Source: Gammaproteobacteria bacterium (GTDB lineage Bacteria > Pseudomonadota > Gammaproteobacteria > Coxiellales > Coxiellaceae). Taken from it: a stretch of 63,102 bases of DNA. The translations under genes were made by a program, and so were the position numbers. Location: NCBI GenBank assembly GCA_030425685.1, contig JAUIAD010000022.1:1-63102 (forward strand). Direction: 5' to 3'. The stretch's first letter is position 1; each line of letters starts with the position of its first letter. Positions 22,252-60,227 of this stretch are shown one piece after another. The notes under the pieces were generated by a model, which was not told the origin of the DNA, did no database searches, and saw only the letters and a list, made by a program, of their open reading frames with translations.

Positions 22252-22272
22252 GCTATTCGGCGTTTGTCAACG
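22252..22272 (+). repeat. 21-bp direct repeat flanking IS66-A (left)
   Basis: Identical to 27643-27663 on the other side of IS66-A. It contains GGCGTTTGTCAACG, the likely end of the IS6-like element. IS66 elements normally duplicate 8 bp. Confidence 0.7.
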
Positions 22273-22353
22273 GTAACCTTCCGACAGCACTGCGCAACTT
22301 TACCTTTATGACATGATTTAATACTGGCTCCATCAATCTAGAGGAGTCAGAAC

Positions 22354-22746
22354 ATGAATGGAGAAATAGAACGCGTCTCAGATGCTTATCAATCTTGGCG
22401 TCAGCGAACCAGACGTGGTGCACACTTACCCCCACAATTAAAAAAGCAAATTATCGATTTAACAAACCAGTACGATATAGTTGCCTTATCCAGGCAGCTG
22501 AATATCTCACCGTATACGCTAAAACGTTGGCATTCAGGTGCCATTACCAGCAAGCTGGGCAGCGGTAACGACGATGCCGGGCACTTTGTTGATTTAAACT
22601 CAGAGAAATCACCCGCTACAATCGACACCCAAACACAAGACGCCACATTAGTCCTGTCGAATAACATCCGGCTTATTCTTCATGGACAAACCGTGGATAA
22701 TTTGATTAAATTCGTCACGATGCTGTCAAGGAGTGCGCACTCATGA
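22354..22746 (+). CDS. tnpA: IS66 TnpA (accessory)
   Basis: A 130-residue accessory protein of IS66. The helix-turn-helix part YQSWRQRTRRGAHLPPQLKK then YDIVALSRQLNISPYTLKRW is the family signature. The gene starts 80 bases inside the terminal repeat and overlaps tnpB by four bases (ATGA), as usual in IS66. Confidence 0.85.
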   Translation: MNGEIERVSDAYQSWRQRTRRGAHLPPQLKKQIIDLTNQYDIVALSRQLNISPYTLKRWHSGAITSKLGSGNDDAGHFVDLNSEKSPATIDTQTQDATLVLSNNIRLILHGQTVDNLIKFVTMLSRSAHS

Positions 22747-23078
22747 TCCACCTAACAGCAGACACTGTCATTCGCTTAGCCATTAAACCCGTTGATTTTA
22801 GGAAACAAATGGACGGTCTCATAGCGCTTTGCGAGCGAGACTTGAGCGAAAAACCACGCTCAGGTGTTTTATTTATTTTTATTAACCGTTCAAAAACCAT
22901 GATTCGTTGCTTACGTTATGAAGTCAATGGTTATTGGCTGGCGACGAAGCGCTTAAGCCGGGGTCGATACCGTTATTGGCCTCATGCAGATGCCCCGGTT
23001 TGTCCTGTGCAAGCAGAGCGACTTTCACGACTGCTGAGAAATGATCTCAGTTGCCAAGAAGATAATAAGGATCGTTGA
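22743..23078 (+). CDS. tnpB: IS66 TnpB (accessory)
   Basis: A 111-residue protein of the IS66 Orf2 family. The segment IKPVDFRKQMDGLIALCE and the following GVLFIFINRSKTMIRCLRYEVNGYWLATKRL are diagnostic. It overlaps tnpA and tnpC, giving the usual coupled operon. Intact. Confidence 0.9.
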   Translation: MIHLTADTVIRLAIKPVDFRKQMDGLIALCERDLSEKPRSGVLFIFINRSKTMIRCLRYEVNGYWLATKRLSRGRYRYWPHADAPVCPVQAERLSRLLRNDLSCQEDNKDR

Positions 23079-23080
23079 AA

Positions 23081-24115
23081 ATGACTGACAAAAAGTCGAC
23101 TCATCAAGAAATCAATATTGAGGAACTCAATGCGCTGATCGAGCGCGTTGAGCATGCTATTGAAAATGAGCTAGCGCTCAGTGTTGATGATCTCAAGTTG
23201 CTATTATCAGCAATCCATACATTATCGACGCTTCAAAGATCGCTTGAAGACAAAAACGCCACGCTCTACAAGCTACGAAAACTGCTAGGGATGATTAAGC
23301 AGTCTGAAAGACGCCCAAGTGGGAATAATAATTTATCCAATAAGAAACGTAACAAAAACTCAAAAGGTAAGAACAATAATAAAAAGCACAACAAGCCACC
23401 CAAGGTTGTTCATCACGCACTAGAAGGTATTAAAAAAGGTGATACATGTCCCGAATGCCAACGTGGCCGGCTTTATAAATTTGATCCTGGTCAGCTGCTG
23501 CGTATTAGCGGTCATGCACCTTATGAGGCGACACAGCACGTGAGTGAGTGCATACGCTGTAATGCTTGTCAGGCAGTCATTACAGCAAATTTGCCACAAG
23601 AAGTGCTTGATGATGGCGCGCCAAATCAACGCTATGGTTACTCGGCGCGCGCACTCATGGTTCTGCACAAGTTCTACAGCGGACTGCCGTACTACCATCA
23701 AGGTAATTTGTCGGCAATGATGGGCGTTGCCATTACTGCGTCGACGATCTTCGACCAATGTGAATACGTAGCCAATGCGATTATGCCAATTTTTTATGAG
23801 CTTCTTCGAATGGCAGCAAATGCAAAACTATTTTTAATGGATGACACGCCACACCGCATTTTAACGCAACAACCCGAAGAACGTCCCAACCGAAATGGTT
23901 CAGGTACTCGAGAGAGGACGGGCGTTTATACCAGCGGATTAGTCGCTTATACGGATGAAGGCCATGAAATTGTATTGTTTCAAACAAGCCTTGGCCATGC
24001 AGGTGAATTCATTGATGAATTACTTAAAAAGCGTGTCTTTGCAGCAATCCTGTGTAGGACTTATTTAACTAGAGCTGCACTACTCCTACCCTCCTATCAA
24101 TCAGAAGCTACCTAG
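23081..24115 (+). pseudogene. tnpC: IS66-A tnpC, 5' part
   Basis: The N-terminal 318 codons of the DDE transposase up to 24035 are followed by about 26 foreign codons. A zinc-finger region (CPECQRGRLY ... CIRCNACQ) and the first catalytic Asp (FLMDDTPHRI) are present. The ATG at 23081 is preceded by a TTG in frame. The gene continues at 26815 after the insertion; joining across the 62-bp duplication restores a full frame. Confidence 0.88.
23974..24035 (+). repeat. 62-bp direct repeat (left copy)
   Basis: Identical to 26815-26876. Both copies encode the tnpC stretch from LFQTSLGHAGE to LLKKR. The insertion therefore carries a 62-bp duplicated target, far longer than the 8 bp normal for IS66. 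Confidence 0.9.
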
Positions 24116-24291
24116 AAAAGATACTTCCTTTTGTAGCCAGATTCTTAAAGTCACCTTATGTTGTTGTCTCTAGGTGCGTGACTCTCGCGGTAATAACAGG
24201 CGATCCAATTCTGTTCGCCTATTTACTTGAATTCACGGCTATTTCCTATTATCCTGGGCGCACTTTTTCACAAGGTTGAGAAGGATACACC

Positions 24292-25950
24292 ATGAGCCAC
24301 GGCAAGGAGCTTCCTCAAGTCGTTGACAAAACGCCCGATGAAATCGAACAAGCGGTTCAGTTCGTTAAAGACTCAGATATCAACGATAGCACCAAGAAGT
24401 TCGTGATATCTTGTATACGCCTGGCGGTTTGGCTCCCCCATGCGTTGCTTGAAAAGAAGATCAGCCTATTCAACCTGCGTAAATTGATTTTTGGCCGAGG
24501 CCGATCAAAAAAGCGAAAGAATAAAAATGAAGGTGGTGATAAAACCAGCACTGATGCGAAAAACATTTCTGAGGCTAACGCTTCTTCTGAAGAAAACACA
24601 ACCAGCGATGACACACCAACAACCGCCACCGAAAATAACGCAGAAAAGAAGTCAGGCCATGGTCGCCTGTCACACGAAGCTTACCCCAATGCGACTCTGC
24701 ACCACCTAACAGTTGCGGGTTTCAATGCGGGAGATCCGTGCCCCTCAGCGTGTGGTGGAAAACTCTATCTGTCTGCACCGAATATTTTGGTGCGCGTTAA
24801 AGGACAACACTTAGCGTCGGTTCACAAATATTATGTGGAATCGTTGCGCTGCGCTTTGTGCGGTGAACTTGTTAAGGCAACGATTCCCAATGAGGTCGGC
24901 AAAGAGAAATACGATGCCACCTTCAAAGCGATCTTGGCCATCCAAAAGTATTACATTGCGATCCCTTTTTATCGCCAAGCGTTTTTTCAATCCCTGCTTA
25001 AGATGCCGGTACCTGCTTCAACGCAATGGAAACTGATTGAGGAAGTCGCAAACCCCGCAATCCCTATCTTTCACGCGCTAGAACAGCATGCGGCTAACGG
25101 CGAGCTTGTGCATGGGGATGACAGCCATCTTAAAATCATTGACGTCATTCGTGACAACCAAAAGAACCCTTCCAAAGAGCGCACGGGTATGTTTACCACG
25201 GCGATACTCGCTAAAGCGCAGGGTCAACAAATCTCACTTTTTTATAATGGTACGCAACATGCGGGTGAGAACATGGAACGACTTCTGGCAAATCGTGACC
25301 CCGATAAAGACAACATCATTTACATGTGTGATGCACTCAGCCGGAACGTCCCAGCAACGTTTAAAACGATTCTATGCAATTGTCTCAGCCATGGCTATCG
25401 AAAATTCGACGATTTAAAAGATTTCTATCCCACGGAATGCATCTATGTCATTGAGCGTCTTGCCAAAGTCTATGAACATGACGACCAGACAAAAGCCATG
25501 GATGATCTAGCTCGTCTGGCCTATCACCAGGACCATAGCCAACCCCTCATGGATGACATTAAACGCTATATCACTGCATTATTAGATGACAAAAAGATTG
25601 AGCCTAATGGTGCATTAGGTAAAGTTCTGAAGTACATGTGCCGACATTGGCATGAGCTAACACAGTTTTTACGTGTTCCGGGGGCGCCCCTCGATAACAA
25701 TATCGTAGAACGTGCGTTAAAGATTCCCATCCGAGGTCGCCGAACCTGGTTGTTCTACAAAACCACCTATGGCGCCATGATCGGCGGTGTGCTCACCAGC
25801 GTGATACACACCTGCGCGTTGGCGGGTGAGAACCCCGTGGATTACCTCACCGCACTACAAACACATAAAGAGCAAGTTTTTAAAGAGCCAAATCACTGGT
25901 TACCGTGGAACTACCAGCAACGGTTGTTATCGCAAAAACGGGCGGCTTAA
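24292..25950 (+). CDS. tnpC: IS66 TnpC transposase (intact)
   Basis: A 552-residue IS66 transposase. It has an N-terminal helical region, a low-complexity Lys/Glu/Thr linker (about 80-125), a zinc-finger region (CPSACGGKLY ... CALCGEL) and the catalytic domain with Asp in HGDDSHLK, Asp in MCDALSRN and Glu in NNIVERALKI. The C-terminal segment PVDYLTALQTHK is typical. An AAGG lies upstream of ATG. Length is normal for the family. Its stop overlaps the stop of tnpB on the other strand by three bases. Confidence 0.92.
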   Translation: MSHGKELPQVVDKTPDEIEQAVQFVKDSDINDSTKKFVISCIRLAVWLPHALLEKKISLFNLRKLIFGRGRSKKRKNKNEGGDKTSTDAKNISEANASSEENTTSDDTPTTATENNAEKKSGHGRLSHEAYPNATLHHLTVAGFNAGDPCPSACGGKLYLSAPNILVRVKGQHLASVHKYYVESLRCALCGELVKATIPNEVGKEKYDATFKAILAIQKYYIAIPFYRQAFFQSLLKMPVPASTQWKLIEEVANPAIPIFHALEQHAANGELVHGDDSHLKIIDVIRDNQKNPSKERTGMFTTAILAKAQGQQISLFYNGTQHAGENMERLLANRDPDKDNIIYMCDALSRNVPATFKTILCNCLSHGYRKFDDLKDFYPTECIYVIERLAKVYEHDDQTKAMDDLARLAYHQDHSQPLMDDIKRYITALLDDKKIEPNGALGKVLKYMCRHWHELTQFLRVPGAPLDNNIVERALKIPIRGRRTWLFYKTTYGAMIGGVLTSVIHTCALAGENPVDYLTALQTHKEQVFKEPNHWLPWNYQQRLLSQKRAA

Positions 25951-26303
25951 GTCTTCGGTAGAGCTCGCCATTCCATCGGGATGCCTGCCTTCACCGGTTC
26001 GCCTTGTGATAACACGATTTGCAATTCGCTGGCACGGATGCGGTAGGTTTCATTATCATCCTTGGGCCACCATTTTAATTTACCTTGAGAAAAGCGCTTC
26101 TGACAAAGCCAAAAGCCGTTGCCGTCATAAACCAGTATCTTAACACCTGTTCTCGCTCGGTTGGTAAAGACAAAGATCGTGCCCGCAAATGGGTCCAGCT
26201 GTAATTGCTGTTCGCATAGCGCCTTCAGCGACTCAATACCTTTTCTAAAGTCGGTAGGCTGAACGGCAAGCAGTAAACGTTGTTGCGGTGTAATCTGCAG
26301 CAT
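25947..26303 (-). CDS. tnpB: IS66 TnpB (convergent copy)
   Basis: A 118-residue TnpB with AVQPTDFRKGIESLKALCEQ and GTIFVFTNRARTGVKILVYD. Intact. It follows tnpA with a one-base overlap but runs towards tnpC, opposite to the standard IS66 operon. The same layout is found in the IS66 copy at 35144-37051. Confidence 0.9.
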   Translation of the reverse strand: MLQITPQQRLLLAVQPTDFRKGIESLKALCEQQLQLDPFAGTIFVFTNRARTGVKILVYDGNGFWLCQKRFSQGKLKWWPKDDNETYRIRASELQIVLSQGEPVKAGIPMEWRALPKT

Positions 26304-26728
26304 TACCAGCTCCTATAAAAATCATTGAGCAGGATCTTGAGGGACGAGACGGGAAATGCTTTAATTGTCAAAGCAGCGCCATCTTGGCGTTTAAGCTCTA
26401 AGTTAAATGTCGCTTTCGAGGCCGCTGGTGCAGACGGCTTGCTTTTCAATGCGTCGGTAGTGAGTTCGAGAAATGCTGGCACTGCATCACTGCTGTCACT
26501 ACACTCCAGTTGGCCACGCCGAGCCTGCTCTTTGCGCAGCTGAGGCTGTGAGATACCGAGAGTATTTAGGACTTTGCTTTCGCTGTAACGATCCTCAAGT
26601 GATAAAACCTGGTCCCATAGACTTTTAGGTATTCTGTCACGCTTAGTGCGCGTCTTTCGCCAATGAGTAAATGCAGCTTTAACATCGTTCAGAGTTATTG
26701 CCGGTGCTGGAATATCTAAGTCAATCAT
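26303..26728 (-). CDS. tnpA: IS66 TnpA (convergent copy)
   Basis: A 141-residue accessory protein. ITLNDVKAAFTHWRKTRTKR and IPKSLWDQVLSLEDRYSESK are matched by the damaged copy at 36523-36966. GGAGGTTATCC precedes ATG 26728, so the longer frame to 26779 is rejected. Intact. Confidence 0.85.
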   Translation of the reverse strand: MIDLDIPAPAITLNDVKAAFTHWRKTRTKRDRIPKSLWDQVLSLEDRYSESKVLNTLGISQPQLRKEQARRGQLECSDSSDAVPAFLELTTDALKSKPSAPAASKATFNLELKRQDGAALTIKAFPVSSLKILLNDFYRSW

Positions 26729-26814
26729 GGATAACCTCCAAAATAGTGATGATTTGAGGTTAAGCCGTATCGGATTCACCGGGGGTTAGTCACACATGCT
26801 TGCTGAAAGCTCAC

Positions 26815-27553
26815 ATTGTTTCAAACAAGCCTTGGCCATGCAGGTGAATTCATTGATGAATTACTTAAAAAGCGTGACAAATCGCTACCAGAGCCGATTG
26901 TTATGAGTGACGCATTGAGCTCTAACAAACCCACTGTGATGGAAGTGCAACAAGCGTATTGCAACGCACATTGCCGCCGAGAATTTTTTGATATTCAGGA
27001 TCAAAAACCAGAAGTCATCGACTGGGTTTTAGAAACCTACGGAAAAATATGGGAAAATGAGGCCTATACAAAAGAAAAAGAGCTCAACGATAAAGAACGA
27101 TTTGAATATCATAAAAAGCATTCACTGCCCGTGATGGAAGATGTAAAAGCCTGGGCTGAAAAGCAAACAAACTCGGATGAATTCGAAGAACATAGTGCTT
27201 TTGGTAAAGCCGTTAAATACTTAAATCGCCACTACGAAAAACTGACGCTATTTTGCCGGATACCTGGTGTTCCTATTGATAACAACAGGATGGAAGAAAC
27301 GCTCAAGCTGATCATCCGAAATCGAAAGACCTCACACTTCTTTAAAACGATCAATGGCGCTGATGTTGCGAACGTTCTCACGACAGCGATTGGTACCGCC
27401 ATGCGTGCTAATATTAATATTTTCGACTATTTGGTTCTTCTTCAAAGACATCATAACGATGTTAAAAAACACCCAGAGCGTTGGCTTCCCTGGAATTATG
27501 AAGACACGCTAAAATCCCTCCTGAAAGAAGCTCAAAAGATTCCAATTACCTAG
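26815..27553 (+). pseudogene. tnpC: IS66-A tnpC, 3' part
   Basis: This starts with the second copy of the 62-bp repeat and encodes the remaining 226 residues of the transposase, with Asp in VMSDALSSN and Glu in NRMEETLKLI. The C-terminal PWNYEDTLKSLL is typical. It has no start of its own; the plus-strand frame simply continues that of 23081-24035. Confidence 0.88.
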
Positions 27554-27642
27554 CTACATTCACATTCCTTAAATTACAGGCATGGTATAGCTATTGTATC
27601 AGGATATTTATTGCCTGTTGCGCAGTGCTGCCGGAAGGTTAC

Positions 27643-27903
27643 GCTATTCGGCGTTTGTCAACGTAGTTGTCGCATTTTTTAGTTGGTTTCGTCAAAGCTC
27701 AGTCACTGAAAATGACAGAATGCTAATCACGCTGTATACTTTCTGAATTTCCAAAAGGAAATCTGCCCATGGACTGCCCAAGTTGCAAGTCGACAAAAAG
27801 TAATCGGATGAAGAAACGTACACAACTTGGCTATCACCGTTATCGGTGTAGCTCTTGTCACTCGCAATTTAACACCTGGCGAATAATCGATGAAGCGTTC
27901 TGA
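27643..27903 (+). pseudogene. IS6-like element, 5' fragment
   Basis: After GGCGTTTGTCAACG (27650-27663, likely terminal repeat) an ORF begins at ATG 27769 and stops at 27901-27903 after 44 codons. It has CPSCKST ... GYHRYRCSSCHSQFN, the zinc-ribbon start of IS6-type transposases, then runs into unrelated codons. The catalytic domain is missing. Confidence 0.6.
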
Positions 27904-27948
27904 ATTTAATTGTAAATCTTCATACTTGCTCTGACACTTTCAGATTTA

Positions 27949-28141
27949 TCAGGCAGTATGTCTGTCATCTAAATCTAAACTGTTCTCGATCATCGTGCGA
28001 TTCTCGCCCTGATAGATCGAGCGTTTAATGCTTTCAGTAGAGGGCGCGATGCTCCCTAAAACCGATGAAACTTCTTCGAAGGTTTCATCACTTTTAGGCA
28101 GCTCGATTGGATTATTACAAGCCCAATGCAGCTTATCCAGG
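27949..28141 (-). pseudogene. 3' gene fragment of unknown family
   Basis: A frame of about 63 codons without a start enters from the right and ends at TGA 27949-27951. It reads LDKLHWACNNPIELP and later IAPSTESIKRSIYQGENRT. This looks like the C-terminal end of a protein cut off by the IS30 insertion. I do not recognise it. Confidence 0.35.
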
Positions 28142-29268
28142 AATTCCCGGAGGTCTCATAAACCCATTAAAATAGGGCTAAACTAAAAAGGCGCATTCAA
28201 CCAATAAGTGCAATTTGCTAAAATTTTGCCAGTTGAAATTGTGAACGGTTAGCAAGTATAGTTGGCCTTTGCATCAACTCTCAAATTAAAGCAAGGAGCA
28301 CAAATGTCCTATACCCAGCTAACCGAGGGACAAAGATACCAAATTTACAGCCTAAAAGGTATTGGTTTTACACAAAAAGATATTGCTGAGCATGTCAATG
28401 TTCACCCGAGCACCATCAGCCGAGAGTTAGGGAGAAATGCAGGCAAGCGCGGGTATCGGCCTAAGCAGGCTAACAACATGGCCATAGAGCGTCGACGCAG
28501 AGCGTTTAAAGTCTGCCGCATGACTGAAGATATGAAAAAGGTGGTCAGCAACTACCTTAGCCAGGAGTGGAGTCCTGAGCAAATATCAGGCTACCTTAGA
28601 TCCCAAGGTGGTGACTGGGTAAGCCATGAAACGATCTATCAATATGTTTTGGAGGACAAAAAAAATGGCGGGACACTCTATCAGCAGCTACGCCACTCAG
28701 GTAAGAAACGAAAGAAACGTTACGGCGGATCTGATCGTCGCGGTGAGATTACAGAGCGTGTGTCCATCGATAAGCGCCCTAAAAGTATAGAAAAACGCGA
28801 TCGTATTGGTGACTGGGAAATTGACTTAGTGATCGGGAAAAGCCATAAAGGCGCTATCGTTACGATTGTTGATCGACTGTCACTGATGACATTGATAGCG
28901 AAGGTAGACAGCAAGCATGCTGCGCTTGTGACAAAGGCAACAACACGCCTTCTCAAGCACTATAAGAGGCGAGCTGCGCACACGATCACCGCCGATAATG
29001 GGAAAGAGTTTTCTGGTCATCAGGAGATTAGCAAAGCGCTAGGGGTTGACTTTTATTTTGCGCATCCATATTCGTCCTGGGAGCGTGGCACCAATGAAAA
29101 TGCAAATGGTTTAATACGTCAGTATCTTCCAAAAGGAACAGAATTTGAGTCAGTGAATGATGAAAAATGCCGCTTCATTATGGATCGACTCAACAATAGG
29201 CCTAGAAAATGTCTTGGCTATCGGACACCTAAGCCAAGTTTTTGAAGAATTTCTTGAAGCAGCCTAAA
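28142..29268 (+). mobile_element. IS30-family element
   Basis: The left end contains the same sequence as the solo end at 19890-19940. The transposase gene fills the rest. The right terminal repeat was not resolved. It abuts the palindrome at 29272-29396. Confidence 0.7.
28304..29245 (+). CDS. IS30-family transposase (C-terminus frameshifted)
   Basis: A 313-residue transposase starting SYTQLTEGQRYQIYSLKG, with an N-terminal helix-turn-helix (HPSTISRELGRN) and DDE core: Asp in GDWEIDLVIG, Asp in TADNGKEF, Glu in GTNENANGLIR. ATG 28304 follows AAGGAG. The stop at 29245 comes after RTPKPSF; in the +1 frame the sequence continues Q-VFEEFLEAA and stops near 29265, which is a better family ending. 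One extra C near 29233 could explain this. The core is intact, so activity may be retained. Confidence 0.88.
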   Translation: MSYTQLTEGQRYQIYSLKGIGFTQKDIAEHVNVHPSTISRELGRNAGKRGYRPKQANNMAIERRRRAFKVCRMTEDMKKVVSNYLSQEWSPEQISGYLRSQGGDWVSHETIYQYVLEDKKNGGTLYQQLRHSGKKRKKRYGGSDRRGEITERVSIDKRPKSIEKRDRIGDWEIDLVIGKSHKGAIVTIVDRLSLMTLIAKVDSKHAALVTKATTRLLKHYKRRAAHTITADNGKEFSGHQEISKALGVDFYFAHPYSSWERGTNENANGLIRQYLPKGTEFESVNDEKCRFIMDRLNNRPRKCLGYRTPKPSF

Positions 29269-29271
29269 AAA

Positions 29272-29396
29272 CTGAGGGCATTTAACGTTTAATTTTTTAA
29301 ATTGGCACCTGTCAAGGACTCGCTACGCTCGCCTGCGGTGCTGGCGCATCCTTGATAGGTGCCAATTTAAAAAATAGCGGTTAATCATGCCCTCAG
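29272..29396. repeat. 125-bp palindromic element (MITE-like)
   Basis: Left arm 29272-29319 and right arm 29349-29396 are inverted repeats (ends CTGAGGGCAT / ATGCCCTCAG; inner TTAAATTGGCACCT / AGGTGCCAATTTAA). The loop has CGCTACGCTCGCCTGCGG. A diverged right arm recurs at 37052-37105. No ORF. Confidence 0.75.
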
Positions 29397-29471
29397 CCAG
29401 AAAATAAATATTGAAATTTGAATTTACTATGATAGAGTCAATCGAGAATTGCAGTTATGATTTGAACTCAA
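29350..29471 (+). repeat. about 122-bp direct repeat (copy 1)
   Basis: This aligns with 37052-37174 at roughly 80% identity; the stretch AATTTACTATGATAGAGTCA is identical. The repeats flank the whole 29.5-37.05 kb segment. Confidence 0.7.
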
Positions 29472-29633
29472 GTAATAGGAAAATTGGGCCGTACTCAGGC
29501 CTCGTGATTGACAGAATGCCGAAGCGCTTAAGTCACTGTTTTCCCAGTCGTCAATCAACCCCTTCCAATACAACCTATTCTTTTCAGTACGCGTGAGCTG
29601 CGATGAGGATATTGAATTACTTGATGTAGACAT
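29427..29633 (-). pseudogene. IS66 tnpA-like 5' fragment
   Basis: The first about 55 residues, with LYWKGLIDDWENSDLSASAF and RGLSTAQFSYY, belong to the helix-turn-helix accessory protein of IS66-type elements. The reading frame then runs into the direct repeat, so the gene is truncated. It belongs to a different IS66 group from the other tnpA genes here. Confidence 0.55.
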
Positions 29634-29677
29634 GTTAATTCTCCGTAATGATTAATAATATGGAGAATAATAATAAA

Positions 29678-30109
29678 CTAAGAGGGGTGTTTGAGAAGGG
29701 CGCCGTTTAATGGACGCTTACAATCCAAATTAATAACGTTGCCTTCATTCTGGCTATTTTTTTCGTCGCTTTTTGCTACTGAGCCCTTTGCGGTATCATC
29801 AGAATCGATATCTGAGGGTAGGCTATTATCTCCGGAATGTTCATTGGTGTTTTCAGCGCTATCCTTATTCTCATCTTTTGATTTCTTCTTACGACGCTTA
29901 CCTGTATCACCAAATAACACACGACGTAGGTTGGCTATGCTAACATCTTTTTCTTCCAGCGCCGCCGGCATCCACGTGGAAAATCGAACGCAATTAATCA
30001 ATATCTCTTGATCATTGTCGCTCATACCAGATTCTTTAAGTCTTTTTTGAAGACCTTCAATTTCTTCAGGGGACATGCTTACCAAAAGTGGTTTCTCGTT
30101 AATCTTCAA
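29678..30109 (-). pseudogene. tnpC: IS66 tnpC 5' fragment (copy C)
   Basis: About 130 residues from the N-terminus of an IS66 transposase: MSPEEIEGLQKRLKESGMSD, then VRFSTWMPAALEEKDVSIAN and RRVLFGDTGKRRKKKSKDEN, followed by an acidic linker. It starts at TTG 30109. It is cut after the linker. Its 183-base leader is nearly identical, in inverse orientation, to that of the copy at 35144-37051. Confidence 0.8.
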
Positions 30110-30292
30110 AATGATCTTATCCTTATGTTCACTCTGAAAACAGCTTTATATTTTTTCGATTACATGTCAATAGGATAGACAGAAACTAAGCTCTTCTTAA
30201 TTATTGTGCACAGCGAAAAGTCAAAAACGCTGCCCCTGGGGGATTATAAAGAATTGCTTGGGTGCATGCATGCACGCTTGCCGGAAGGACAC
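30110..30292 (-). repeat. IS66 leader and terminal end (inverse copy)
   Basis: This ends with the inverse of GTGTCCTTCCGGCAAGCGTGC at 30292 and is almost identical to 35144-35322 read the other way. The two ends face the MCE/intron cargo. Confidence 0.85.
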
Positions 30293-30337
30293 GTGAAAAT
30301 GGGTGTACAGCATCATAGAAATGCGCAATCCGTTCGC

Positions 30338-30994
30338 TTAGCGCGCAGATCCACGAATCGAAGCAGCAATAGCCTGACTCAAGCTATCAAGATTTTGATT
30401 CATTGAACGCACAAGACATTGATAACACAGCGTATTTCCTAAGTAAATCTGTTGACGAAAGGTTCGTGTCTTCGCCATAACGATATGATTACTCAATGGA
30501 TTTTTAATGTACCAACTTGCCTTTAACAGAGAAAGCCCGGATTGGCTGACATCAAACCGCTCTATCGTCACCGCTACTTGATACTGCGCAGCGGTATTGA
30601 TATTGCCGTGATAAGGAAATACGTAATTGGAATGCAGTGCTGAGCGTAGATTCTGCACTAACACCTCTTTGACGTTATCTCGCAAAGGCTGCGCCCAACG
30701 CTGGAATTCATCCACGTGAATTTGATTAGCACTTAATCGAGTGACAATTTGCGAACGTTGCAAATAAGAAGCCATTGTCAGCGGACCTACTAGCACACGC
30801 TGATGACGATATAGTTGACCATGACGTAAAACGGGATTCATCACATAGAATTGAGCTGGCCTGGATTTACAGGCGGATAGCTGCATCGCCATCATCAACA
30901 ACAGCACACAGCATCCCAGTCGCTGACAGCATACTAGAATAGTGGGCGCCCGTCTGCTGAGAACAGATACACAATACCGATAATAAACGTTCAT
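30338..30994 (-). CDS. PqiC/YmbA-like lipoprotein (ABC transport auxiliary)
   Basis: A 218-residue lipoprotein: a long basic N-terminus, hydrophobic segment and lipobox LSAC with Cys42. The mature part (QFYVMNPVL ... VLVGPLTMASYLQRSQIVTRL, then FQRWAQPLRDNVKEVLVQNL) fits the PqiC/ABC_trans_aux domain of MCE transport systems, which sits at the inner face of the outer membrane. It starts in the stop codon of the MCE gene (TAATG), so it is translationally coupled. The start may lie further inside because the leader is long. Confidence 0.8.
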   Translation of the reverse strand: MNVYYRYCVSVLSRRAPTILVCCQRLGCCVLLLMMAMQLSACKSRPAQFYVMNPVLRHGQLYRHQRVLVGPLTMASYLQRSQIVTRLSANQIHVDEFQRWAQPLRDNVKEVLVQNLRSALHSNYVFPYHGNINTAAQYQVAVTIERFDVSQSGLSLLKASWYIKNPLSNHIVMAKTRTFRQQIYLGNTLCYQCLVRSMNQNLDSLSQAIAASIRGSAR

Positions 30995-31713
30995 TAGTTT
31001 TTATGTTTCCCTGTAATGATCGACTCAGGATGGCGAGCAAGATAGTCTGTCAATACACTAAGATGATATGCCGTTTTCTCAAGCTCCGACAGCAAACTTG
31101 AAACCTGATGTGAGATCGGTGGAATTTGTCGATTAGCTAAATCAATGGTTTTCTGTGCCTTGTTCATCGTGCTCGTAATACTATTCAGTGTTTTTTTAGC
31201 AGCATCAAGGGTCTCGGTCAATTGCTGTTGTTGGCTTTTTTTGTGAATCGTTGGAATTTCATTAGGGGTGTGTAAATGGTATTTTTTAGGTGCCGTTGGT
31301 TTTATCACTAACGCAATGATTTGATTGTTGGATAATAGGTTTCTATTTTTCAATTTCGCTCTTAGACCGTTTTTAATCAGTAGGCTTACCCGCTGACGCG
31401 TGAAAGGTTGCACTTTATAGGATTTATCGACCATTAAACGATTATAAAAGCTCACCCATACCGGCATGCTGGCAACAATACGATTGCGATTTAAAACTAT
31501 GCGTATCTTTTCAACTTCACCCACTTTAATACCACGGTATTCAACAGGGGTTCCCACATGAATACCTTTTAAACTTCCATCAAACACCATGACAAACAAA
31601 TTTTGACGATCAAGCTGCTGTCGTAATGAAAATAGAAAAATCAATGAAACCAATGCCACGATACTAAGAATAAAAAATGCGCCAACCCACGTTAACCTGC
31701 TCCTATCTCTCAT
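30994..31713 (-). CDS. MlaD-family MCE protein
   Basis: A 239-residue protein with one N-terminal membrane helix (WVGAFFILSIVALVSLIFLF) and a single MCE domain from about residue 37 (LFVMVFDGSLKGIHVGTPVEY, then GIKVGEVEKIRI). The C-terminal half is predicted coiled coil (LDAAKKTLNSITSTMNKAQ). MCE proteins form hexameric rings that shuttle phospholipids or hydrophobic compounds across the periplasm. It lies 55 bases after the permease gene. Confidence 0.88.
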   Translation of the reverse strand: MRDRSRLTWVGAFFILSIVALVSLIFLFSLRQQLDRQNLFVMVFDGSLKGIHVGTPVEYRGIKVGEVEKIRIVLNRNRIVASMPVWVSFYNRLMVDKSYKVQPFTRQRVSLLIKNGLRAKLKNRNLLSNNQIIALVIKPTAPKKYHLHTPNEIPTIHKKSQQQQLTETLDAAKKTLNSITSTMNKAQKTIDLANRQIPPISHQVSSLLSELEKTAYHLSVLTDYLARHPESIITGKHKN

Positions 31714-31768
31714 AGCTATCCAATACTCCTACTATTCTCAAACCATGCCCACGTCCCGTGAATAAGGA

Positions 31769-32527
31769 TCACCACCGCAACTGAATATTTTGCAGACCAA
31801 CCTGAAAACACGCGATAATCACACCGCCATATAAAATAGCATTCACAGCAATAGTATGTTTTTTATATTGAAACGGGTAATGGTGCTGGTATTGATAAAA
31901 CAATAGAACAAATGACAGAACAACCGCACTACCGCCGGTTTTGATCAAACCCATATAGAACCCCTTAAAGATAAAATGAACATACAACGCATGTAGATAC
32001 TGATCATATCCAAACCCATATAGCATACTCAGCAGCATGCTCACCAAGATACTACTCATAAGATACCAACTATAAAATAAACACGCACACAAGATCACAG
32101 CGATACATTGAGACACGACATAATCTGAATTGTGCGGGTAGTCTTCAGGGTGAAACTCAATTTTAATAGTGCTGGCTTTTCGAAATAACAGGGTAAAATT
32201 AATAGCAAACGGAGCAATCCAAACAAACAATATCGAACTATAGAGCTTAACAAGCAAATTTTCTGCACCAATTAATGACAACTGCATAAAAATAAAAAAA
32301 GTAACACTGAAACTGATCACCACCGCTATCGTAAGCACAGACTTCATATTGCTAACACCATGCTCATAACAAGCGCTAACCAGTGCCTGTATGCTTCTTT
32401 GACGTGGATGACGTATCAATTCAACCAATGACAAAAATGCACTACCAAAAAAAACCAACACACTTTGCAGCCAGGCTCGCACACGGAAAACGTAATAACC
32501 CAAGTGACAGATACAATCCATTACCAA
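31769..32527 (-). CDS. MlaE-like permease (divergent)
   Basis: A 252-residue polytopic membrane protein with about five or six hydrophobic helices (for example VLTIAVVISFSVTFFIFM, LFVWIAPFAINFTLLF, AVVLSFVLLFYQYQ). Length, the position before an MCE gene and the HGVSNMKSVLTIAVV region support an MlaE/permease-type role, though the sequence is divergent from the classical family. An ATPase gene (MlaF type) would be expected but none is encoded nearby; it may be chromosomal. Confidence 0.65.
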   Translation of the reverse strand: MVMDCICHLGYYVFRVRAWLQSVLVFFGSAFLSLVELIRHPRQRSIQALVSACYEHGVSNMKSVLTIAVVISFSVTFFIFMQLSLIGAENLLVKLYSSILFVWIAPFAINFTLLFRKASTIKIEFHPEDYPHNSDYVVSQCIAVILCACLFYSWYLMSSILVSMLLSMLYGFGYDQYLHALYVHFIFKGFYMGLIKTGGSAVVLSFVLLFYQYQHHYPFQYKKHTIAVNAILYGGVIIACFQVGLQNIQLRW

Positions 32528-32662
32528 TACCCAATCAGCGAATGTAAAGGACTTAATCCCAGTAAATCAAAGAATAAAGAGTAATCCAAGCTCAAAAAAA
32601 TGAGTTAGCATTTAAAATGAGCATGGATTCCTGCTTTCTTCAATAGAAGGTACGACCAGAGA

Positions 32663-32866
32663 TTAGTAGCGACGTCTTGCAACGCGACGCGATGTACGTC
32701 TTGACACGCGACGATCTACACCTGCTGCCGTCACGGGCGGAACAGTGGTGTAAGTTCTAGTTGTGCTATAAGTACCGCCCGATGGGGTCGTCACCGTATG
32801 AGTTGTACAACCTGCTAACAAAGAGCAGAACGCTAAGCCGACACCAGCTGAAAAAATATACTTCAT
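32663..32866 (-). CDS. small lipoprotein with Arg-rich tail
   Basis: A 67-residue protein with signal peptide and lipobox LLAGC (Cys19), a Thr/Ser-rich middle and a C-terminus of repeated Arg-Arg/Ser/Val (DRRVSRRTSRRVARRRY). GAAAGGATC lies upstream of ATG. It follows the MCE operon region on the same strand. Such short, highly basic lipoproteins are seen in Legionella-type bacteria but I know no defined function. It could bind lipid A, DNA or peptidoglycan. Confidence 0.7.
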   Translation of the reverse strand: MKYIFSAGVGLAFCSLLAGCTTHTVTTPSGGTYSTTRTYTTVPPVTAAGVDRRVSRRTSRRVARRRY

Positions 32867-33200
32867 TTGAAAGATCCTTCTTTATATAAAATCAGTTACT
32901 TTTAAACTATCACAAAAGCAAGAGCAGTACAATTAGGAATGCGGCCAGCAATTCCCGGCCAATTTAAAAATGGGCAATCGGATGATAATTTTATCGTTTT
33001 AATGGCGAACTCAAACCTGCCCACTCAAAATCACCCACAAAAACCCACAAGAATTCGTTCACTATACAAACAGTTAGCGGAAATTGATCAAGTAAAATCC
33101 TCACGACCCTTGTCGTGATTTCAACCCATTGATTATGACCTTGGCCACATCGCTGTATCTATAATGACCCCCATATTTTAGACCAGATATCGGTTTAAAT
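32867..33200. other. gap between lipoprotein gene and group II intron
   Basis: This contains a diverged CGGCCAATTTAAAAA motif (32956) related to the palindromic element and a hairpin TCACGAC/GTCGTGA at 33101-33118. A short minus-strand frame (33118-33200) reads KYGGHYRYSDVAKV and could be a broken exon. No complete gene. Confidence 0.3.
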
Positions 33201-33253
33201 TTATGAGATAATCCGTCGAGTATGAGAGGGACAAAGTGCCCCTCCCACCTCAC

Positions 33254-33287
33254 AGAACCCGCCGTGCCGATTTCCAGCAACGGGCTC
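33254..33287 (-). ncRNA. group II intron domain V
   Basis: On the minus strand, GAGCCCGTTGCTGGAAATCG then GCACGGCGGGTTCT folds into the 34-nt catalytic hairpin with the AGC triad and GAAA tetraloop. A GC-rich stem that may be domain VI follows. Confidence 0.8.
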
Positions 33288-33300
33288 TTCAACACTAGAT

Positions 33301-34620
33301 TTACAGACAGGCACTATCTTTTAAGTCCCGATAGGGTAAGTATATCTTTGGCCTCTGGAGTGGAAAATTCTTCAGGAATCTATTAAATTTCTCCCAAGTC
33401 ACTTTCCCGTTTTGGCTGCGTGAACTCAGCATTTTACGCCAGTATCTAACCGTAAAGACGAAGACATTCTTAATGGCGTGCCAGTTGCCCGCTATTCCAT
33501 AATAGCGATAGTGGCCTGACAACATCACATTAATTATCTTTCTTTGCTCGGTCATTGGCTGATGGCGAATACGCCTCAGTGTCTCTTTCATCTTTACAAA
33601 ACTTCGCCGAAGGCGTGTTTTCTCCGTCTTTGCGCCTACCTTGAATTGGTTAAACCGATTCTTGCTACAGTAAAGCGTAAATCCGAGGAAATAAATTGTC
33701 TCCGGCTTTTTGTTTTGTTCCTTTGCATCTCTTTCTGCAAACCGCCCAAACTTTATCAGCCTGGTTTTGTTTGGTTCCAGAGTTAATGAAAATTTGCTGA
33801 GGCGCTTGCTCAACACTGCTTGAAAGCGTACGGCATCGGAGTGATACTGAAAACACAACACAAAATCATCCAAGTATCGGACGTAATAAATTTCGCCTTT
33901 CATTTTCGGCTTGACTATCTTCTCTATCCATAAATCTAGTACATAGTGAAGATATAGGTTGCTGATCAAAACGCTAATCGGCCCCCCTTGTGCTGTACCT
34001 TCTTTCGTTGGCTGCCATGTGCCTTCTTCCATAACACCCGCCTTCATCCACCTTTTAATTAAGGTTAGAATTCGCGGATCTCCAACACGGATTGATAAGA
34101 AGCGTTCTACCCAATCCTGGTTCAAACTACCAAAGAAGTTTTTAAGGTCTGCCTCAAAAACATAGCTGACTTTCTTCGTTGTGATTGCCATATGCAGTGT
34201 TGCCACTGCTTGGTGCGCACTTTTATTTGGCCTACCCCCGAAGGAACAGTCCAGAAAGTCTTGCTCGTATATTGCATTTAACACGTCCGCCGTTGACTTC
34301 TGTAACACTCTGTCAGAAACAGTGGGCACTGAAATTGGACGACGCTGTGCTTTTCCCGGCTTCGGAATGTAAACTCTGCGCGTTGGAGGTGGCTTGTAAC
34401 CCCTCGTATGCACAGATTGTAATATATCCGTCGACCAGCCAGCAAAATTCGCAGTGGCTTGCTCTGTCGTTTGTTTATCAATACCAATCGCTGTCTTTCG
34501 AGGAATCTTCATGAGATTGTCCCAAAGTGACAGTCGATCAATATGATGCGCGAGCGACGTAAAGCGTAACTTCTTATCTCCTCGTGCTTTCTCTGCTATC
34601 CTTTTAAATCCCGTTGACAT
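33301..34620 (-). CDS. ltrA: group II intron reverse transcriptase/maturase
   Basis: A 439-residue intron-encoded protein. RT motifs are clear: RRVYIPKPGKAQRRPISVPT (RT2), FEADLKNFFGSLNQ (RT3), GTAQGGPISVLISNLYLH (RT4) and the catalytic YVRYLDDFVLCF (RT5, YLDD). Maturase domain X follows (GHYRYYGIAGNWHAI). No HNH endonuclease domain is seen at the C-terminus, so it may resemble bacterial IIC or C-type introns. No stop or frameshift. Splicing and mobility are plausible. Confidence 0.92.
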   Translation of the reverse strand: MSTGFKRIAEKARGDKKLRFTSLAHHIDRLSLWDNLMKIPRKTAIGIDKQTTEQATANFAGWSTDILQSVHTRGYKPPPTRRVYIPKPGKAQRRPISVPTVSDRVLQKSTADVLNAIYEQDFLDCSFGGRPNKSAHQAVATLHMAITTKKVSYVFEADLKNFFGSLNQDWVERFLSIRVGDPRILTLIKRWMKAGVMEEGTWQPTKEGTAQGGPISVLISNLYLHYVLDLWIEKIVKPKMKGEIYYVRYLDDFVLCFQYHSDAVRFQAVLSKRLSKFSLTLEPNKTRLIKFGRFAERDAKEQNKKPETIYFLGFTLYCSKNRFNQFKVGAKTEKTRLRRSFVKMKETLRRIRHQPMTEQRKIINVMLSGHYRYYGIAGNWHAIKNVFVFTVRYWRKMLSSRSQNGKVTWEKFNRFLKNFPLQRPKIYLPYRDLKDSACL

Positions 34621-35133
34621 AATAGGTTTACTCCTCTCATTGTATAAAGGACCTAACCTCTCATTGCATAGAGGATTATGGTTCCGTTAAAAGGTTCTAA
34701 TGTTGTGAACCGCTTCCCCTTGTGCTTGGCTTTCCCAAACTCTGAGTACTATCAGTTCATCCGACTCCCAACAAAATGTCCCCTTAAACTTGCTTTGTAA
34801 GGCTTGTTCAAGGGTACGGCTTCCGTTCCGATTTTATTGGGCCTCCCGCGTTCACGCGCAATCTTTTGTTAACATGCCATCGGTTCAAATCCCGGAGACC
34901 TTCCCTTTGCTCACTAGAGCGCAAAGTTCCTGCTGCCTTCCCCGTGGACACTTATGGGTCGGCGATCTCACATGACCGATATTTCGGGACAAATCCGTTC
35001 ACTTTCGTTATGGCCTGTTAACCCCCTGTCTACGCTTCACCACATTTGTTCTACATTTCTGCATCCGCCTGCGGCGCAAGACTCAGTTCTCGACTGCTAG
35101 TTAAGCTTTGTCGAGGTGCATATTTCAATGCAC
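34621..35133 (-). ncRNA. group II intron 5' RNA domains I-IV
   Basis: This GC-rich, gene-free stretch upstream of the maturase ORF on the minus strand is the expected position of domains I-IV. Segments such as AAGCCTTACAAAGCAAGTTT and GGTCTCCGGGATTTGAACCG can form long stems. I have not folded it fully. Confidence 0.55.
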
Positions 35134-35365
35134 TAGATTGCGCGTGTCCTTCCGGCAAGCGTGCATGCATTCACCCAAGCAATTCTTTATAATCCCCCAG
35201 GGGCAGCGTTTTTAACTTTTCGCTGTGCAAAATAATTAAGACGAGCTTAGTTTCTGTCTATCCTATTGACATGTAATCGAAAAAATATAAAGCTGTTTTC
35301 AGAGTGAACATAAGGATAAGATCATTAAACACAATGTTGATAATCCAGGTAGAAAACGCACTGGC

Positions 35366-36136
35366 ATGTGCACAACAGGTATTGTTGCTAAAACAAAAGA
35401 GGGGCGCACTATTGCCCTTTATTATACTGGCACAAAACATGCGGGTGAAAACCTCGATGACATTTTGAAACACCGAGAAGAGAAAAAAGAGAAGTTGTTA
35501 CAAATGTGTGATGCGTTATCGGCAAATATACCAAAAGCACTCGAGACAATTCTTTGCAATTGTTTGGCACATCCATTCCGAAAATTTCGTGACTTACTCG
35601 ACTTTTATCCAGAAGCCTGTCTGCATGTCATAACAGAGCTAAGCAACGTCTACAAAAATGACGAAATGACACGAAGCATGAGTGATCTTGACCGTCTTCG
35701 CTACCACCGTAAGCATAGCAAAAAAATTATGCTGGATATCAACCGCTGGTTAAAACGACAATTATCTGCAAAATTGGTGGAGCCAAATAGTGCGTTAGGT
35801 AAAGCCATGCGATATATGCTGAAGCATTGGAAAAAACTTCGGCGATTCTTAACGACACCGGGCGCACTCATCGACAACAATATTGTTGAGCGCGCATTAA
35901 AAATACCGATTAAAGTTAGAAAAACGGCTATGTTTTATAAAACGGAGCATGGCGCCACGATTGCTAGCATTTTAACAAGCTTAATTGTAACGGCGGCTTT
36001 AGCAGATGAGAACCCAGTAGACTATCTGATAGCCTTACAAGAAAATAAGCATGCTGTTTTTGCTGATCCTGATGCATGGATTCCATGGCGCTATCGTGAA
36101 ACGTTAAAAAGTAAAGCATTGCCAATCGCTGCCTAG
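35366..36136 (+). pseudogene. tnpC: IS66-B tnpC, internally deleted
   Basis: The frame encodes the catalytic half (HAGENLDDILKHREEKKEKL, Asp in MCDALSANI, Glu in NNIVERALKI) but not the first about 290 residues. The element leader runs unchanged to GATCATT (about 35322) and then jumps into codons preceding RTGMCTTGIVAK; the intact relative has this at mid-gene. A deletion at a short GATCATT-like match explains it. The 3' end is intact. Confidence 0.85.
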
Positions 36137-36145
36137 TGTACGGCG

Positions 36146-36526
36146 TTATTTTGAAGACGGCGTGGGTTGCGTTGGAAGCCGACGCCATGGTTCGCCAAGT
36201 GATGAGCTGGCTGGATTACCTTGATTAATGAGAATATTCAGCGCGGTTGCATCGATATGGTAAATGGATTCTGGCGCTTGACTAGAAGGCCACCACTTTA
36301 GTTTGCCTTGGGAAAATCGTTTAAGACAAAGCCAGAAGCCATTGCCGTCGTAGGCTAATAGTTTAACCGCTGTTTTCTTTCGATTGGTAAAGCCAAATAC
36401 AGCTCCGGAGAAAGGATCGCTAATGAGCTTCTGCTGGCACAAGGCAATAAGCGAATCAATGCCTTTACGGAAGTCTGTAAAATCAACGGATAGAAAAAGC
36501 TGCATCTGCGGCGTAAACTGAATCAT
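36146..36526 (-). CDS. tnpB: IS66-B TnpB
   Basis: A 126-residue TnpB with SVDFTDFRKGIDSLIALCQQ, GAVFGFTNRKKTAVKLLAYD and CLKRFSQGKLKWWP. Intact. It is convergent with tnpC and overlaps tnpA by four bases. Confidence 0.88.
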   Translation of the reverse strand: MIQFTPQMQLFLSVDFTDFRKGIDSLIALCQQKLISDPFSGAVFGFTNRKKTAVKLLAYDGNGFWLCLKRFSQGKLKWWPSSQAPESIYHIDATALNILINQGNPASSSLGEPWRRLPTQPTPSSK

Positions 36527-36966
36527 GCTAAGCCTACCACTCCCAAGAACTGTCGTACAATGGTAAGGGCATCTTGGTGGAGAAATTGCCTTATTTGTAG
36601 AGTGCTTCCATCTGGTCGTGTCAATAACAAATCACAAGGGTGTGAGGTTTTTGGGGTGTCATACCCGGACACGATGGCTTTTACAAAAGGGGATGCTTGA
36701 TCGGTTATTGATTCCTCTGGCGTTCCAGAGCTGTGCTTTTTTTTACGAGAATCCAGTTGTTTTTGCAGCTGATCTTGACTAATTCCAAGTGCGTTCCTTA
36801 CTTTGCTTTCTGGATAGTTGGGCAATAGCGCTATTACTTGATCTCATAACGATGACGGTATGCGACCGCGGGGACCGCGGCATCGCCATTCTCGAAAGGC
36901 AATCATAACGTCTTTGAGAGACAAGCGCGCTGTTTGGTTGGGTGATTCCTGTGATGTGTTGATCAT
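36523..36966 (-). pseudogene. tnpA: IS66-B tnpA with internal stop
   Basis: Starting at ATG 36966 behind GGAGCTTGCAT, the frame encodes SLKDVMIAFREW and RIPSSL, then a TGA (36844-36846), then DQVIALLPNYPESKVRNALG. The intact relative at 26303-26728 has Trp (SLWDQ) here, so TGG became TGA. A shorter product from an internal start at 36825 is possible. Confidence 0.85.
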
Positions 36967-37051
36967 ATGCAAGCTCCTGCTAGTGGAAAATAGAGCAGAT
37001 AGGATAGCTTAATGTATTAGGGTAAGGCACGCACGCTTGCCGGAAGGACAC

Positions 37052-52776: not shown

Positions 52777-52790
52777 AGGGATAACTTCCT

Positions 52791-54776: not shown

Positions 54777-54891
54777 AATATCCTCTTTGATTCTTGTAGC
54801 AGATGAACACTTGGTGGTGTATAATATAGAGACAGCAAATTGATTTACTTAATACCCATCTAATCAGAAATTTAATACAGGAAGTAAAAAG

Positions 54892-55293
54892 ATGGCTTAT
54901 AAAGCTCGAATAAAAAATACACCGCCCAAAAGCGTTACTCGGCGCATAACATCTAAAAAAGTCAACTACCGGTATTTGACTTTTATTTTTATTACTATTT
55001 TTGCATTTAGCACGGGAGCGATTGCAGCAATTACCATTGGTATTAACGCTTATCTCTTCTTGGCGTCTCCTGTAATCGGTTTTATTCTCGCTTATTTGGT
55101 CGCGCGTGAAAATTACCATAAAATGATTTCCTTAGGATTAGATGAATACAATAAACAATACAGATATAATGTGTGTTGTCATCGCCATATTCACAAATCT
55201 CCCTTCATCGAGGACAGTGGGAATCCCTTGGACCCTGCTAGCAGGAATTACTGGGCAATTGGCCCTGGTAGCTCGAATTACCATGACAGGTGA
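54892..55293 (+). CDS. small membrane protein between traD and traG (traS position)
   Basis: A 133-residue protein on the strand opposite to the tra genes. The basic N-terminus (KARIKNTPPKSVTRRITSKK) is followed by two membrane helices (YLTFIFITIFAFSTGAIAAI and YLFLASPVIGFILAYLVA) and a soluble His/Tyr/Cys-containing tail. ACAGGAAG stands seven to nine bases before ATG. In F the entry exclusion gene traS, also a small inner-membrane protein, lies between traG and traD. Sequence similarity to TraS is not seen, so the role is inferred from position and topology. An overlapping minus-strand frame exists but lacks features of a real gene. Confidence 0.6.
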   Translation: MAYKARIKNTPPKSVTRRITSKKVNYRYLTFIFITIFAFSTGAIAAITIGINAYLFLASPVIGFILAYLVARENYHKMISLGLDEYNKQYRYNVCCHRHIHKSPFIEDSGNPLDPASRNYWAIGPGSSNYHDR

Positions 55294-55295
55294 CA

Positions 55296-57968: not shown

Positions 57969-58014
57969 GCGATCATTCCTGCTTTTGTATATTTATTCCT
58001 GGCTTTATTCTGTT

Positions 58015-58398: not shown

Positions 58399-58412
58399 TT
58401 TTTCTCTCCTTG

Positions 58413-60213: not shown

Positions 60214-60227
60214 CAGTTTTTTCCTAC

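What the first reader, a model, noticed from the sequence alone, without database searches (positions are those of the whole stretch)
24292..36966. IS66 subgroup with tnpC convergent to tnpB-tnpA
In both 24036-26814 and 35144-37051 the genes are tnpC (plus) and tnpB-tnpA (minus), tail to tail with overlaps or 10-base gaps. Standard IS66 has tnpA-tnpB-tnpC in one direction. Two different copies, with diverged sequences and ends, share the layout, so it is a stable arrangement. Antisense overlap could regulate transposition.
Basis: partly seen in the sequence, partly recalled or inferred. Interest (0 to 1): 0.55.

Follow-up and report, generated by a model that had tools for sequence, protein, structure and literature searches.

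The report
Convergent-order IS66 transposon lineage
The window holds two jumping DNA elements of the known IS66 family whose transposase gene faces its two helper genes instead of following them; relatives in other bacteria share this layout, and some of them carry one extra gene along.

Summary
Confirmed: at 24033-26814 tnpC (+) meets tnpB-tnpA (-) with a 4-base overlap; at 35144-37051 with a 9-base gap, but that copy is broken. The layout is no local inversion: it recurs in 4 of 4 further genomes hit in a class sample, 24 of 24 places in Legionellaceae (threshold E<=1e-60), and 16 of 63 loci of a genome-contig scan. Ends are IS66-like; 12 of 33 testable relatives have an exact 8-bp target duplication, against 0 at 20 shifted offsets. 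TnpC phylogeny rejects one convergent clade (AU p=3.9e-5; pruned 0.0017); the short TnpB does not (p=0.53). Some relatives carry druA or one cargo gene outside the start of tnpC; the window copies carry none. Antisense regulation is untested: 22 of 32 junctions overlap, 10 do not. Unexpectedly, copy 1 is flanked by a 59-bp perfect repeat, and the IS66 that it interrupts by a 21-bp one. I class it as a new variant of a known kind. Ten open-access searches (several listings partial) showed no description, but ISfinder and the 2010 paper on IS66 organisation could not be read.

The parts
24033..26814 (.). copy 1: convergent-order IS66-family element, 2782 bp, all three genes open
   Evidence: ORFs and ends
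24033..24058 (+). left terminal inverted repeat of copy 1 (GTGTCTTTGCAGCAATCCTGTGTAGG)
   Evidence: abuts the 59-bp repeat; resembles the right end and the relatives' ends
26789..26814 (-). right terminal inverted repeat of copy 1 (GTGAGCTTTCAGCAAGCATGTGTGAC)
   Evidence: 26 of 26 to a degenerate end consensus that I drew from the relatives and this copy
24292..25950 (+). tnpC, DDE transposase, 552 aa
   Evidence: PF03050 139.2 bits against cut-off 23.1; NF033517 169.2 bits, under its cut-off of 180
25947..26303 (-). tnpB, 118 aa, overlaps the end of tnpC by 4 bases
   Evidence: PF05717 and NF033819 above cut-off
26303..26728 (-). tnpA, 141 aa; its stop shares one base with the tnpB start (TAATG)
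   Evidence: position, and similarity to tnpA of relatives (E 1e-15 in L011, 2e-24 in L013); no Pfam hit
23974..24032 (+). left copy of the 59-bp perfect direct repeat (62 bp if GTG is counted with it)
26815..26873 (+). right copy of the 59-bp direct repeat
22273..27642 (+). standard-order IS66 interrupted by copy 1: tnpA 22354-22746, tnpB 22743-23078, tnpC split into 23075-24032 and 26816-27553
   Evidence: ORFs, Pfam, terminal repeats
22252..22272 (+). left copy of the 21-bp perfect direct repeat flanking the interrupted IS66
27643..27663 (+). right copy of the 21-bp direct repeat
35144..37051 (.). copy 2: degenerate convergent-order IS66 element, 1908 bp
   Evidence: terminal repeats; ORFs
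35321..36136 (+). tnpC remnant of copy 2 (C-terminal half)
   Evidence: residues 285-548 of copy 1, 54% identity; PF03050
36146..36526 (-). tnpB of copy 2, 126 aa
   Evidence: PF05717
36523..36966 (-). tnpA of copy 2 with one in-frame stop
29722..30292 (-). left end plus N-terminal part of tnpC of another element of the copy-2 type (180 of 188 bases like the left end of copy 2)

Best explanation
Copy 1 is an apparently complete IS66-family insertion sequence of a convergent-order type. TnpC, the DDE transposase, is read inward from the left end; the tnpA-tnpB operon is read inward from the right end; the two units meet tail to tail. SHOWN: layout, ends and 8-bp target duplications are shared by relatives in other genomes, so this is a lasting, mobile form of IS66 and not a local inversion. 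SHOWN ON TnpC ONLY: convergent and codirectional orders are not separated by one branch, so the order changed more than once; the direction is unknown. INFERRED: the change came by inversion and move of the tnpA-tnpB block relative to (druA-)tnpC, or by exchange of tnpC between elements. INFERRED: TnpC cuts at GTG...CAC, with TnpA and TnpB assisting, as in ordinary IS66 (recalled). INFERRED: with the genes split over two facing transcripts, read-through from either side of the insertion is sense for one module and antisense for the other, which would damp transposition after insertion into an active gene. In several relatives the left arm, outside the start of tnpC, holds one extra gene.
For: Same order in 4 of 4 further genomes hit in a 369-genome class sample; in 24 of 24 places in 17 of 143 Legionellaceae genomes at E<=1e-60, three of them identical copies in one genome; in 16 of 63 genome-contig loci, against 31 codirectional and 16 without a tnpB found. 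Seven of those 16 lie in the same places as Legionellaceae hits, and L037 equals L012. The queries were convergent TnpCs, so these are not prevalences. Plasmid records: L015 and L018 convergent, L016 and L017 codirectional, of 4 opened among 9 hit. Shared ends. Exact 8-bp duplications with both ends in 12 of 33 testable loci, 0 at 20 shifted offsets; three identical 4249-bp copies in one genome each have a different 8-bp duplication. AU tests on TnpC p=3.88e-05 and 0.00165.
Against: TnpB phylogeny does not reject one clade (p=0.528; held tree 0.86 log units better). The TnpC trees have long branches, and the program warns that two of them meet even in the pruned tree. Copy 1 itself has a 59-bp repeat instead of an 8-bp one, and its TnpC falls under the NCBIfam IS66 cut-off. 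Twenty-one of 33 relatives showed no 8-bp duplication, among them several with clear ends on both sides (L011, L020, L040, L051, L055, L098). Promoter-like sites in 24000-26900: 4 found, 3.9 expected, none between an end and its first gene. No expression or transposition data.
Confidence: 0.85

Rival explanations
1. Both window copies are local inversions of ordinary IS66 elements.
For: The window is rearranged: an interrupted IS66, a degenerate copy 2 and a second left-end fragment.
Against: The same order, ends and 8-bp duplications occur in other genomes.
Confidence: 0.02
2. All convergent elements descend from one rearrangement; the extra changes on the TnpC tree come from exchange of tnpC genes or from tree error.
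For: The TnpB tree does not reject one clade; holding it together scored 0.86 log units better. Long branches are present.
Against: TnpC rejects it with the full and with the pruned rows. Convergent L012, L033, L037 and L014 group with codirectional L016 and L024 on TnpC.
Confidence: 0.3
3. The 59-bp repeat is a true long target duplication, made by widely staggered strand transfer of this element.
For: It is perfect and abuts both ends. The interrupted IS66 has 21 bp and the codirectional element L036 has 89 bp, also abutting their ends.
Against: Relatives that show a duplication show 8 bp, and the three long repeats differ in length. Exchange between two nearby insertions on sister copies, or one-ended transfer to the sister, would give such repeats and, reciprocally, the cases without a duplication.
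Confidence: 0.2
4. The tail-to-tail overlap is a dedicated antisense switch.
For: 22 of 32 junctions overlap and terminator-like sites past the stops are rare (3 of 32 past tnpC, 0 of 32 past tnpB; crude scan).
Against: 10 of 32 have gaps of 5-22 bases, overlaps run from 4 to 164, and folding z-scores scatter from -5.4 to +2.7.
Confidence: 0.2

Closest known systems
IS66 family, classic tnpA-tnpB-tnpC order
   Same: TnpC DDE transposase, TnpB, small TnpA, terminal repeats beginning GTG or GTA, 8-bp duplications in relatives
   Different: tnpC faces tnpB-tnpA instead of following it
tIS66 with passenger gene, e.g. ISPa75-fosZ (PMC12888890, passages read)
   Same: IS66 element carrying one passenger gene within its ends
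   Different: In ISPa75 the passenger lies downstream of the DDE transposase gene. In convergent relatives it lies outside the start of tnpC. The window copies have none.
IS66-type elements with a druA gene between tnpB and tnpC (14 of 31 codirectional genome-contig loci)
   Same: Related TnpC; some convergent elements also have druA, directly before tnpC
   Different: All four genes codirectional
ISBst12 group of IS66, e.g. ISDge4 (PMC12898284, passages read)
   Same: IS66-type transposase, ends beginning GTGACT/GTAACT, an 8-bp direct repeat
   Different: ISBst12-type elements have a single ORF; here tnpA and tnpB are present

Membership tests
IS66 family | IS66-type DDE transposase TnpC | tested here: met
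   PF03050 139.2 bits, cut-off 23.1; D and E positions conserved in the alignment (naming of the triad recalled). But NF033517 169.2 bits, under its cut-off of 180
IS66 family | TnpB accessory protein | tested here: met
   PF05717 98 bits and NF033819 94.7 bits, both above cut-off
IS66 family | TnpA accessory protein | tested here: inconclusive
   No Pfam or NCBIfam hit; similar to tnpA of relatives and found by a profile that I built from nine such proteins, these two included
IS66 family | usual gene order tnpA-tnpB-tnpC in one direction (typical; I do not take it as defining, since ISBst12-type members have one ORF) | tested here: not met
IS66 family | terminal inverted repeats | tested here: met
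IS66 family | 8-bp target duplication | tested here: inconclusive
   Copy 1: not met (59 bp); copy 2: none found; relatives: 12 of 33 met, 0 at 20 shifted offsets
tIS66 (IS66 with passenger gene) | a non-transposition gene within the ends | tested here: not met
   The window copies have only tnpA, tnpB, tnpC; relatives L022, L052, L129-L131, L136 and L137 have one
ISBst12 group | single ORF | tested here: not met
   three ORFs; definition from passages of PMC12898284
one monophyletic convergent subgroup | convergent members form one side of one branch | tested here: inconclusive
   TnpC: rejected, AU p=3.88e-05, 0.00165 pruned; TnpB: not rejected, p=0.528
active transposon | transposition of copy 1 | not testable with these tools
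   needs a laboratory assay

The most novel reading that the evidence does not exclude
Convergent-order IS66 elements are a distinct kind of small cargo transposon. With tnpC read inward from the left end, the left arm acts as a slot for a single exchangeable gene, read away from tnpC and taken up when an outer end replaces the old one. In Legionellaceae and neighbours the slot carries different genes, among them a member of a gene family spread in many copies through that family, so the layout would be a vehicle for spreading such genes.
Probability: 0.35. Interest if true: 0.65.

Novelty: new variant of a known kind. Interest (0 to 1): 0.45.

Why it matters
IS66 is usually pictured as one operon whose three genes are expressed together (recalled). 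A lasting form that splits them over two facing transcripts would show that this coupling is not needed, give a natural test of what TnpA and TnpB do, and mark a type that order-based IS annotation could mis-parse. The cargo-bearing relatives suggest a route by which single genes move within Legionellaceae and neighbours. The 21-, 59- and 89-bp flanking repeats raise a separate question about how IS66 insertions are made or reworked.

Tried and rejected
Local inversion: rejected by the relatives. Circular intermediate: the 2647-bp L. longbeachae 'plasmid' record L015 is just one such element, but it is linear and ends inside both terminal repeats, so I take it as a stray assembly piece and not as proof of a circle. 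Recombination between copies of the interrupted IS66 as source of the 59-bp repeat: only one copy is held in the genome; a lost copy cannot be excluded. Junction structure or terminators: nothing consistent (mononucleotide shuffles, crude terminator rule). Promoters at the ends: none found there. Old inner left end in loci with a long left arm: the homology of L019 and L022 starts exactly at an end-like sequence about 135 bases before tnpC, but the shuffle test was under 0.05 in only 4 of 12 such loci (L019, L022, L052, L112; not in L021, L110, L115, L116, L118, L121, L122, L124); suggestive only. L019's own 8-bp duplication is weak: left end 14 of 26, and its cargo frame runs 18 bases past it. 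Phage collection: no hit at E<=1e-30. Viral contigs: 3 loci, two codirectional and one without tnpB. Papers on IS66 organisation that could not be read.
Full report
OBSERVATION. Copy 1 runs from 24033 to 26814. It encodes tnpC on the plus strand (24292-25950) and tnpB (25947-26303) and tnpA (26303-26728) on the minus strand; tnpC and tnpB overlap by four bases. Copy 2 runs from 35144 to 37051 with the same order and a nine-base gap, but it is a remnant: its tnpC keeps only the C-terminal half and its tnpA has an in-frame stop. Pfam names TnpC and TnpB of both copies as IS66. TnpC of copy 1 is under the NCBIfam IS66 cut-off (169.2 against 180). The two TnpCs share 54% identity over the common part.

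SURROUNDINGS. Copy 1 lies inside tnpC of a standard-order IS66 whose ends are at 22273 and 27642. Copy 1 is flanked by a perfect 59-bp direct repeat (62 bp if the GTG of the end is counted with it). The interrupted IS66 is itself flanked by a perfect 21-bp repeat. A second left end of the copy-2 type, with the N-terminal part of tnpC, lies inverted at 29722-30292; it matches the left end of copy 2 in 180 of 188 bases. Of the ten TnpC-like places in the own genome five lie in this window; of the five others two are codirectional and three have no tnpB found nearby.

RELATIVES. In a class-wide sample 5 of 369 genomes had a match at E<=1e-60: the own genome and four others, all four convergent. 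None of the other 35 genomes of the own family had one. In Legionellaceae 17 of 143 genomes had 24 places, all 24 with tnpB facing tnpC; three are identical copies in one genome. In the genome-contig scan 63 loci came back: 16 convergent, 31 codirectional, 16 without a tnpB found. Seven of the 16 are the same places as Legionellaceae hits (L038, L041, L046, L050, L051, L052, L055), and L037 is identical in sequence to L012. The queries were convergent TnpCs, so these numbers are not prevalences. Of 9 plasmid records hit I opened 4: L015 (Legionella longbeachae) and L018 (Candidatus Megaera) are convergent, L016 and L017 codirectional. Some convergent loci come from bins labelled Myxococcales, Pyrinomonadaceae and Burkholderiaceae (L020, L048, L039); wrong binning was not tested. 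In 14 of the 31 codirectional loci a druA gene accompanies tnpC, in most of them between tnpB and tnpC; PF14236 was tested on L012 only, the others by a profile from three such proteins. Convergent L012, L033, L037 and L039 have druA directly before tnpC.

ENDS AND DUPLICATIONS. The ends follow GTGwCCTTyCGGCAAG. I tried 40 convergent entries, two of them the window copies; 4 had no right end by my rule and one (L132) had too little flank. Of the remaining 33, 12 showed an exact 8-bp duplication with an acceptable left end, against 0 at each of 20 shifted offsets. L012 and L037 are one event, and L019 is weak. Three identical 4249-bp copies in one genome have three different 8-bp duplications. 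Twenty-one of 33 showed none, among them elements with clear ends on both sides. Codirectional L016 and L017 and an IS66 of the own genome (L146) also show 8 bp; L036, codirectional, shows 89 bp. look only for repeats of at least 7 or 8 bases beside paired ends, so they give no distribution.

PHYLOGENY. On 64 TnpC rows (60 different; 41 convergent, of which 37 different; 16 codirectional; 7 without state; three places entered twice) the order needs four changes, and three are forced by starred branches. Most convergent rows form one clade of 31 (30 convergent, 1 without state; SH-aLRT 97). Holding all convergent rows together is rejected (p-AU 3.88e-05). With ten rows removed (long branches and some others) it is still rejected (p 0.00165, three changes, 54 rows; the program warns that two long branches meet). 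TnpB, 55 rows and 118 columns, does not reject it (p 0.528). The trees are unrooted, so the direction of change is not known.

JUNCTION. In 32 loci, the window copies included, the tnpC/tnpB junction ranges from an overlap of 164 bases to a gap of 22; 22 overlap and 10 have a gap. A crude script found terminator-like sites behind tnpC in 3 of 32 and behind tnpB in 0 of 32; folding z-scores scatter from -5.4 to +2.7. Facing transcripts may well run into each other, but nothing shows that this regulates transposition.

CARGO IN RELATIVES. Where both ends are known with a duplication, some convergent elements carry an extra open reading frame between the left end and tnpC, read away from tnpC: L022 281 aa, L052 507 aa with PAS, GAF and HD domains, L129-L131 299 aa, L136 487 aa, L137 about 150 aa, leucine-rich by eye (other frames overlap it). 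L021 (340 aa) has such a frame with ends but no duplication, and L019 (492 aa) with a weak left end. Others have none (for example L041, L139, L055, L040). The 299-aa cargo has matches at E<=1e-10 in 72 of 143 Legionellaceae genomes, its carrier included, mostly to its first 220 or so residues and mostly in longer open frames; other families were not searched for it. The 487-aa cargo has matches in 5 of 143, its carrier included. The PAS-HD cargo has partial matches elsewhere in 3 of 8 genomes searched. The window copies have no cargo.

LITERATURE. Ten searches of the open-access library (listings of 69, 85, 90 and 91 partial) listed no paper whose title or shown abstract start describes convergent IS66. 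I read passages of four papers only: PMC12888890 (254 IS66 members in ISfinder, passenger-bearing tIS66, passenger downstream of the DDE transposase), PMC3281130 (two IS66 elements of 2.7-2.8 kb with 8-bp repeats), PMC6778807 (its 'convergent' concerns other genes) and PMC12898284 (an ISBst12-type IS66 with an 8-bp repeat). The review of 2014, the 2010 paper on organisation of the IS66 family and the 2001 paper on IS66-family elements are not held. ISfinder was not available.

VERDICT. A real, recurrent organisation of a known family: a new variant of a known kind, unless the unread sources already list it.

Noticed in passing
window 23974-24032 / 26815-26873 and 22252-22272 / 27643-27663; L036 3837-3925 / 6403-6491: Perfect 59-, 21- and 89-bp direct repeats abut the ends of three different IS66-family elements, where 8 bp was found in the others that show a clear duplication. 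Unexplained; exchange between nearby insertions on sister copies is one idea.
   Followed up: partly
window 29722-30292 (-): A second left end and tnpC N-terminal part of the copy-2 type, breaking off at 29721 at a sequence (GTAAGCGTCC) that looks like the end of yet another IS66.
   Followed up: partly
L012 341-1303, L024 930-1847, L028 1451-2335 and other loci: A druA-like gene (PF14236 tested in L012) is part of many IS66-type elements, between tnpB and tnpC or directly before tnpC.
   Followed up: partly
L022 3730-3761; L137 6197-6228 (reverse complement); L136 from 5316: The outer left end is (L022, L137) or looks like (L136) a 32-bp near-perfect palindrome of the terminal repeat, near the end of the cargo gene; it may double as a terminator.
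   Followed up: partly
L015 (NZ_CP082851.1): A 2647-bp record filed as a Legionella longbeachae plasmid consists of one convergent IS66 element only.
   Followed up: partly
L014 1980-3299: A group II intron reverse transcriptase (RVT_1, GIIM) lies where the front of a convergent tnpC should be.
   Followed up: no
window 47041-62799: F-type conjugation genes: TrwC/TraI relaxase, coupling protein, TraG-like, TraN, on the same stretch of DNA as the IS cluster.
   Followed up: no
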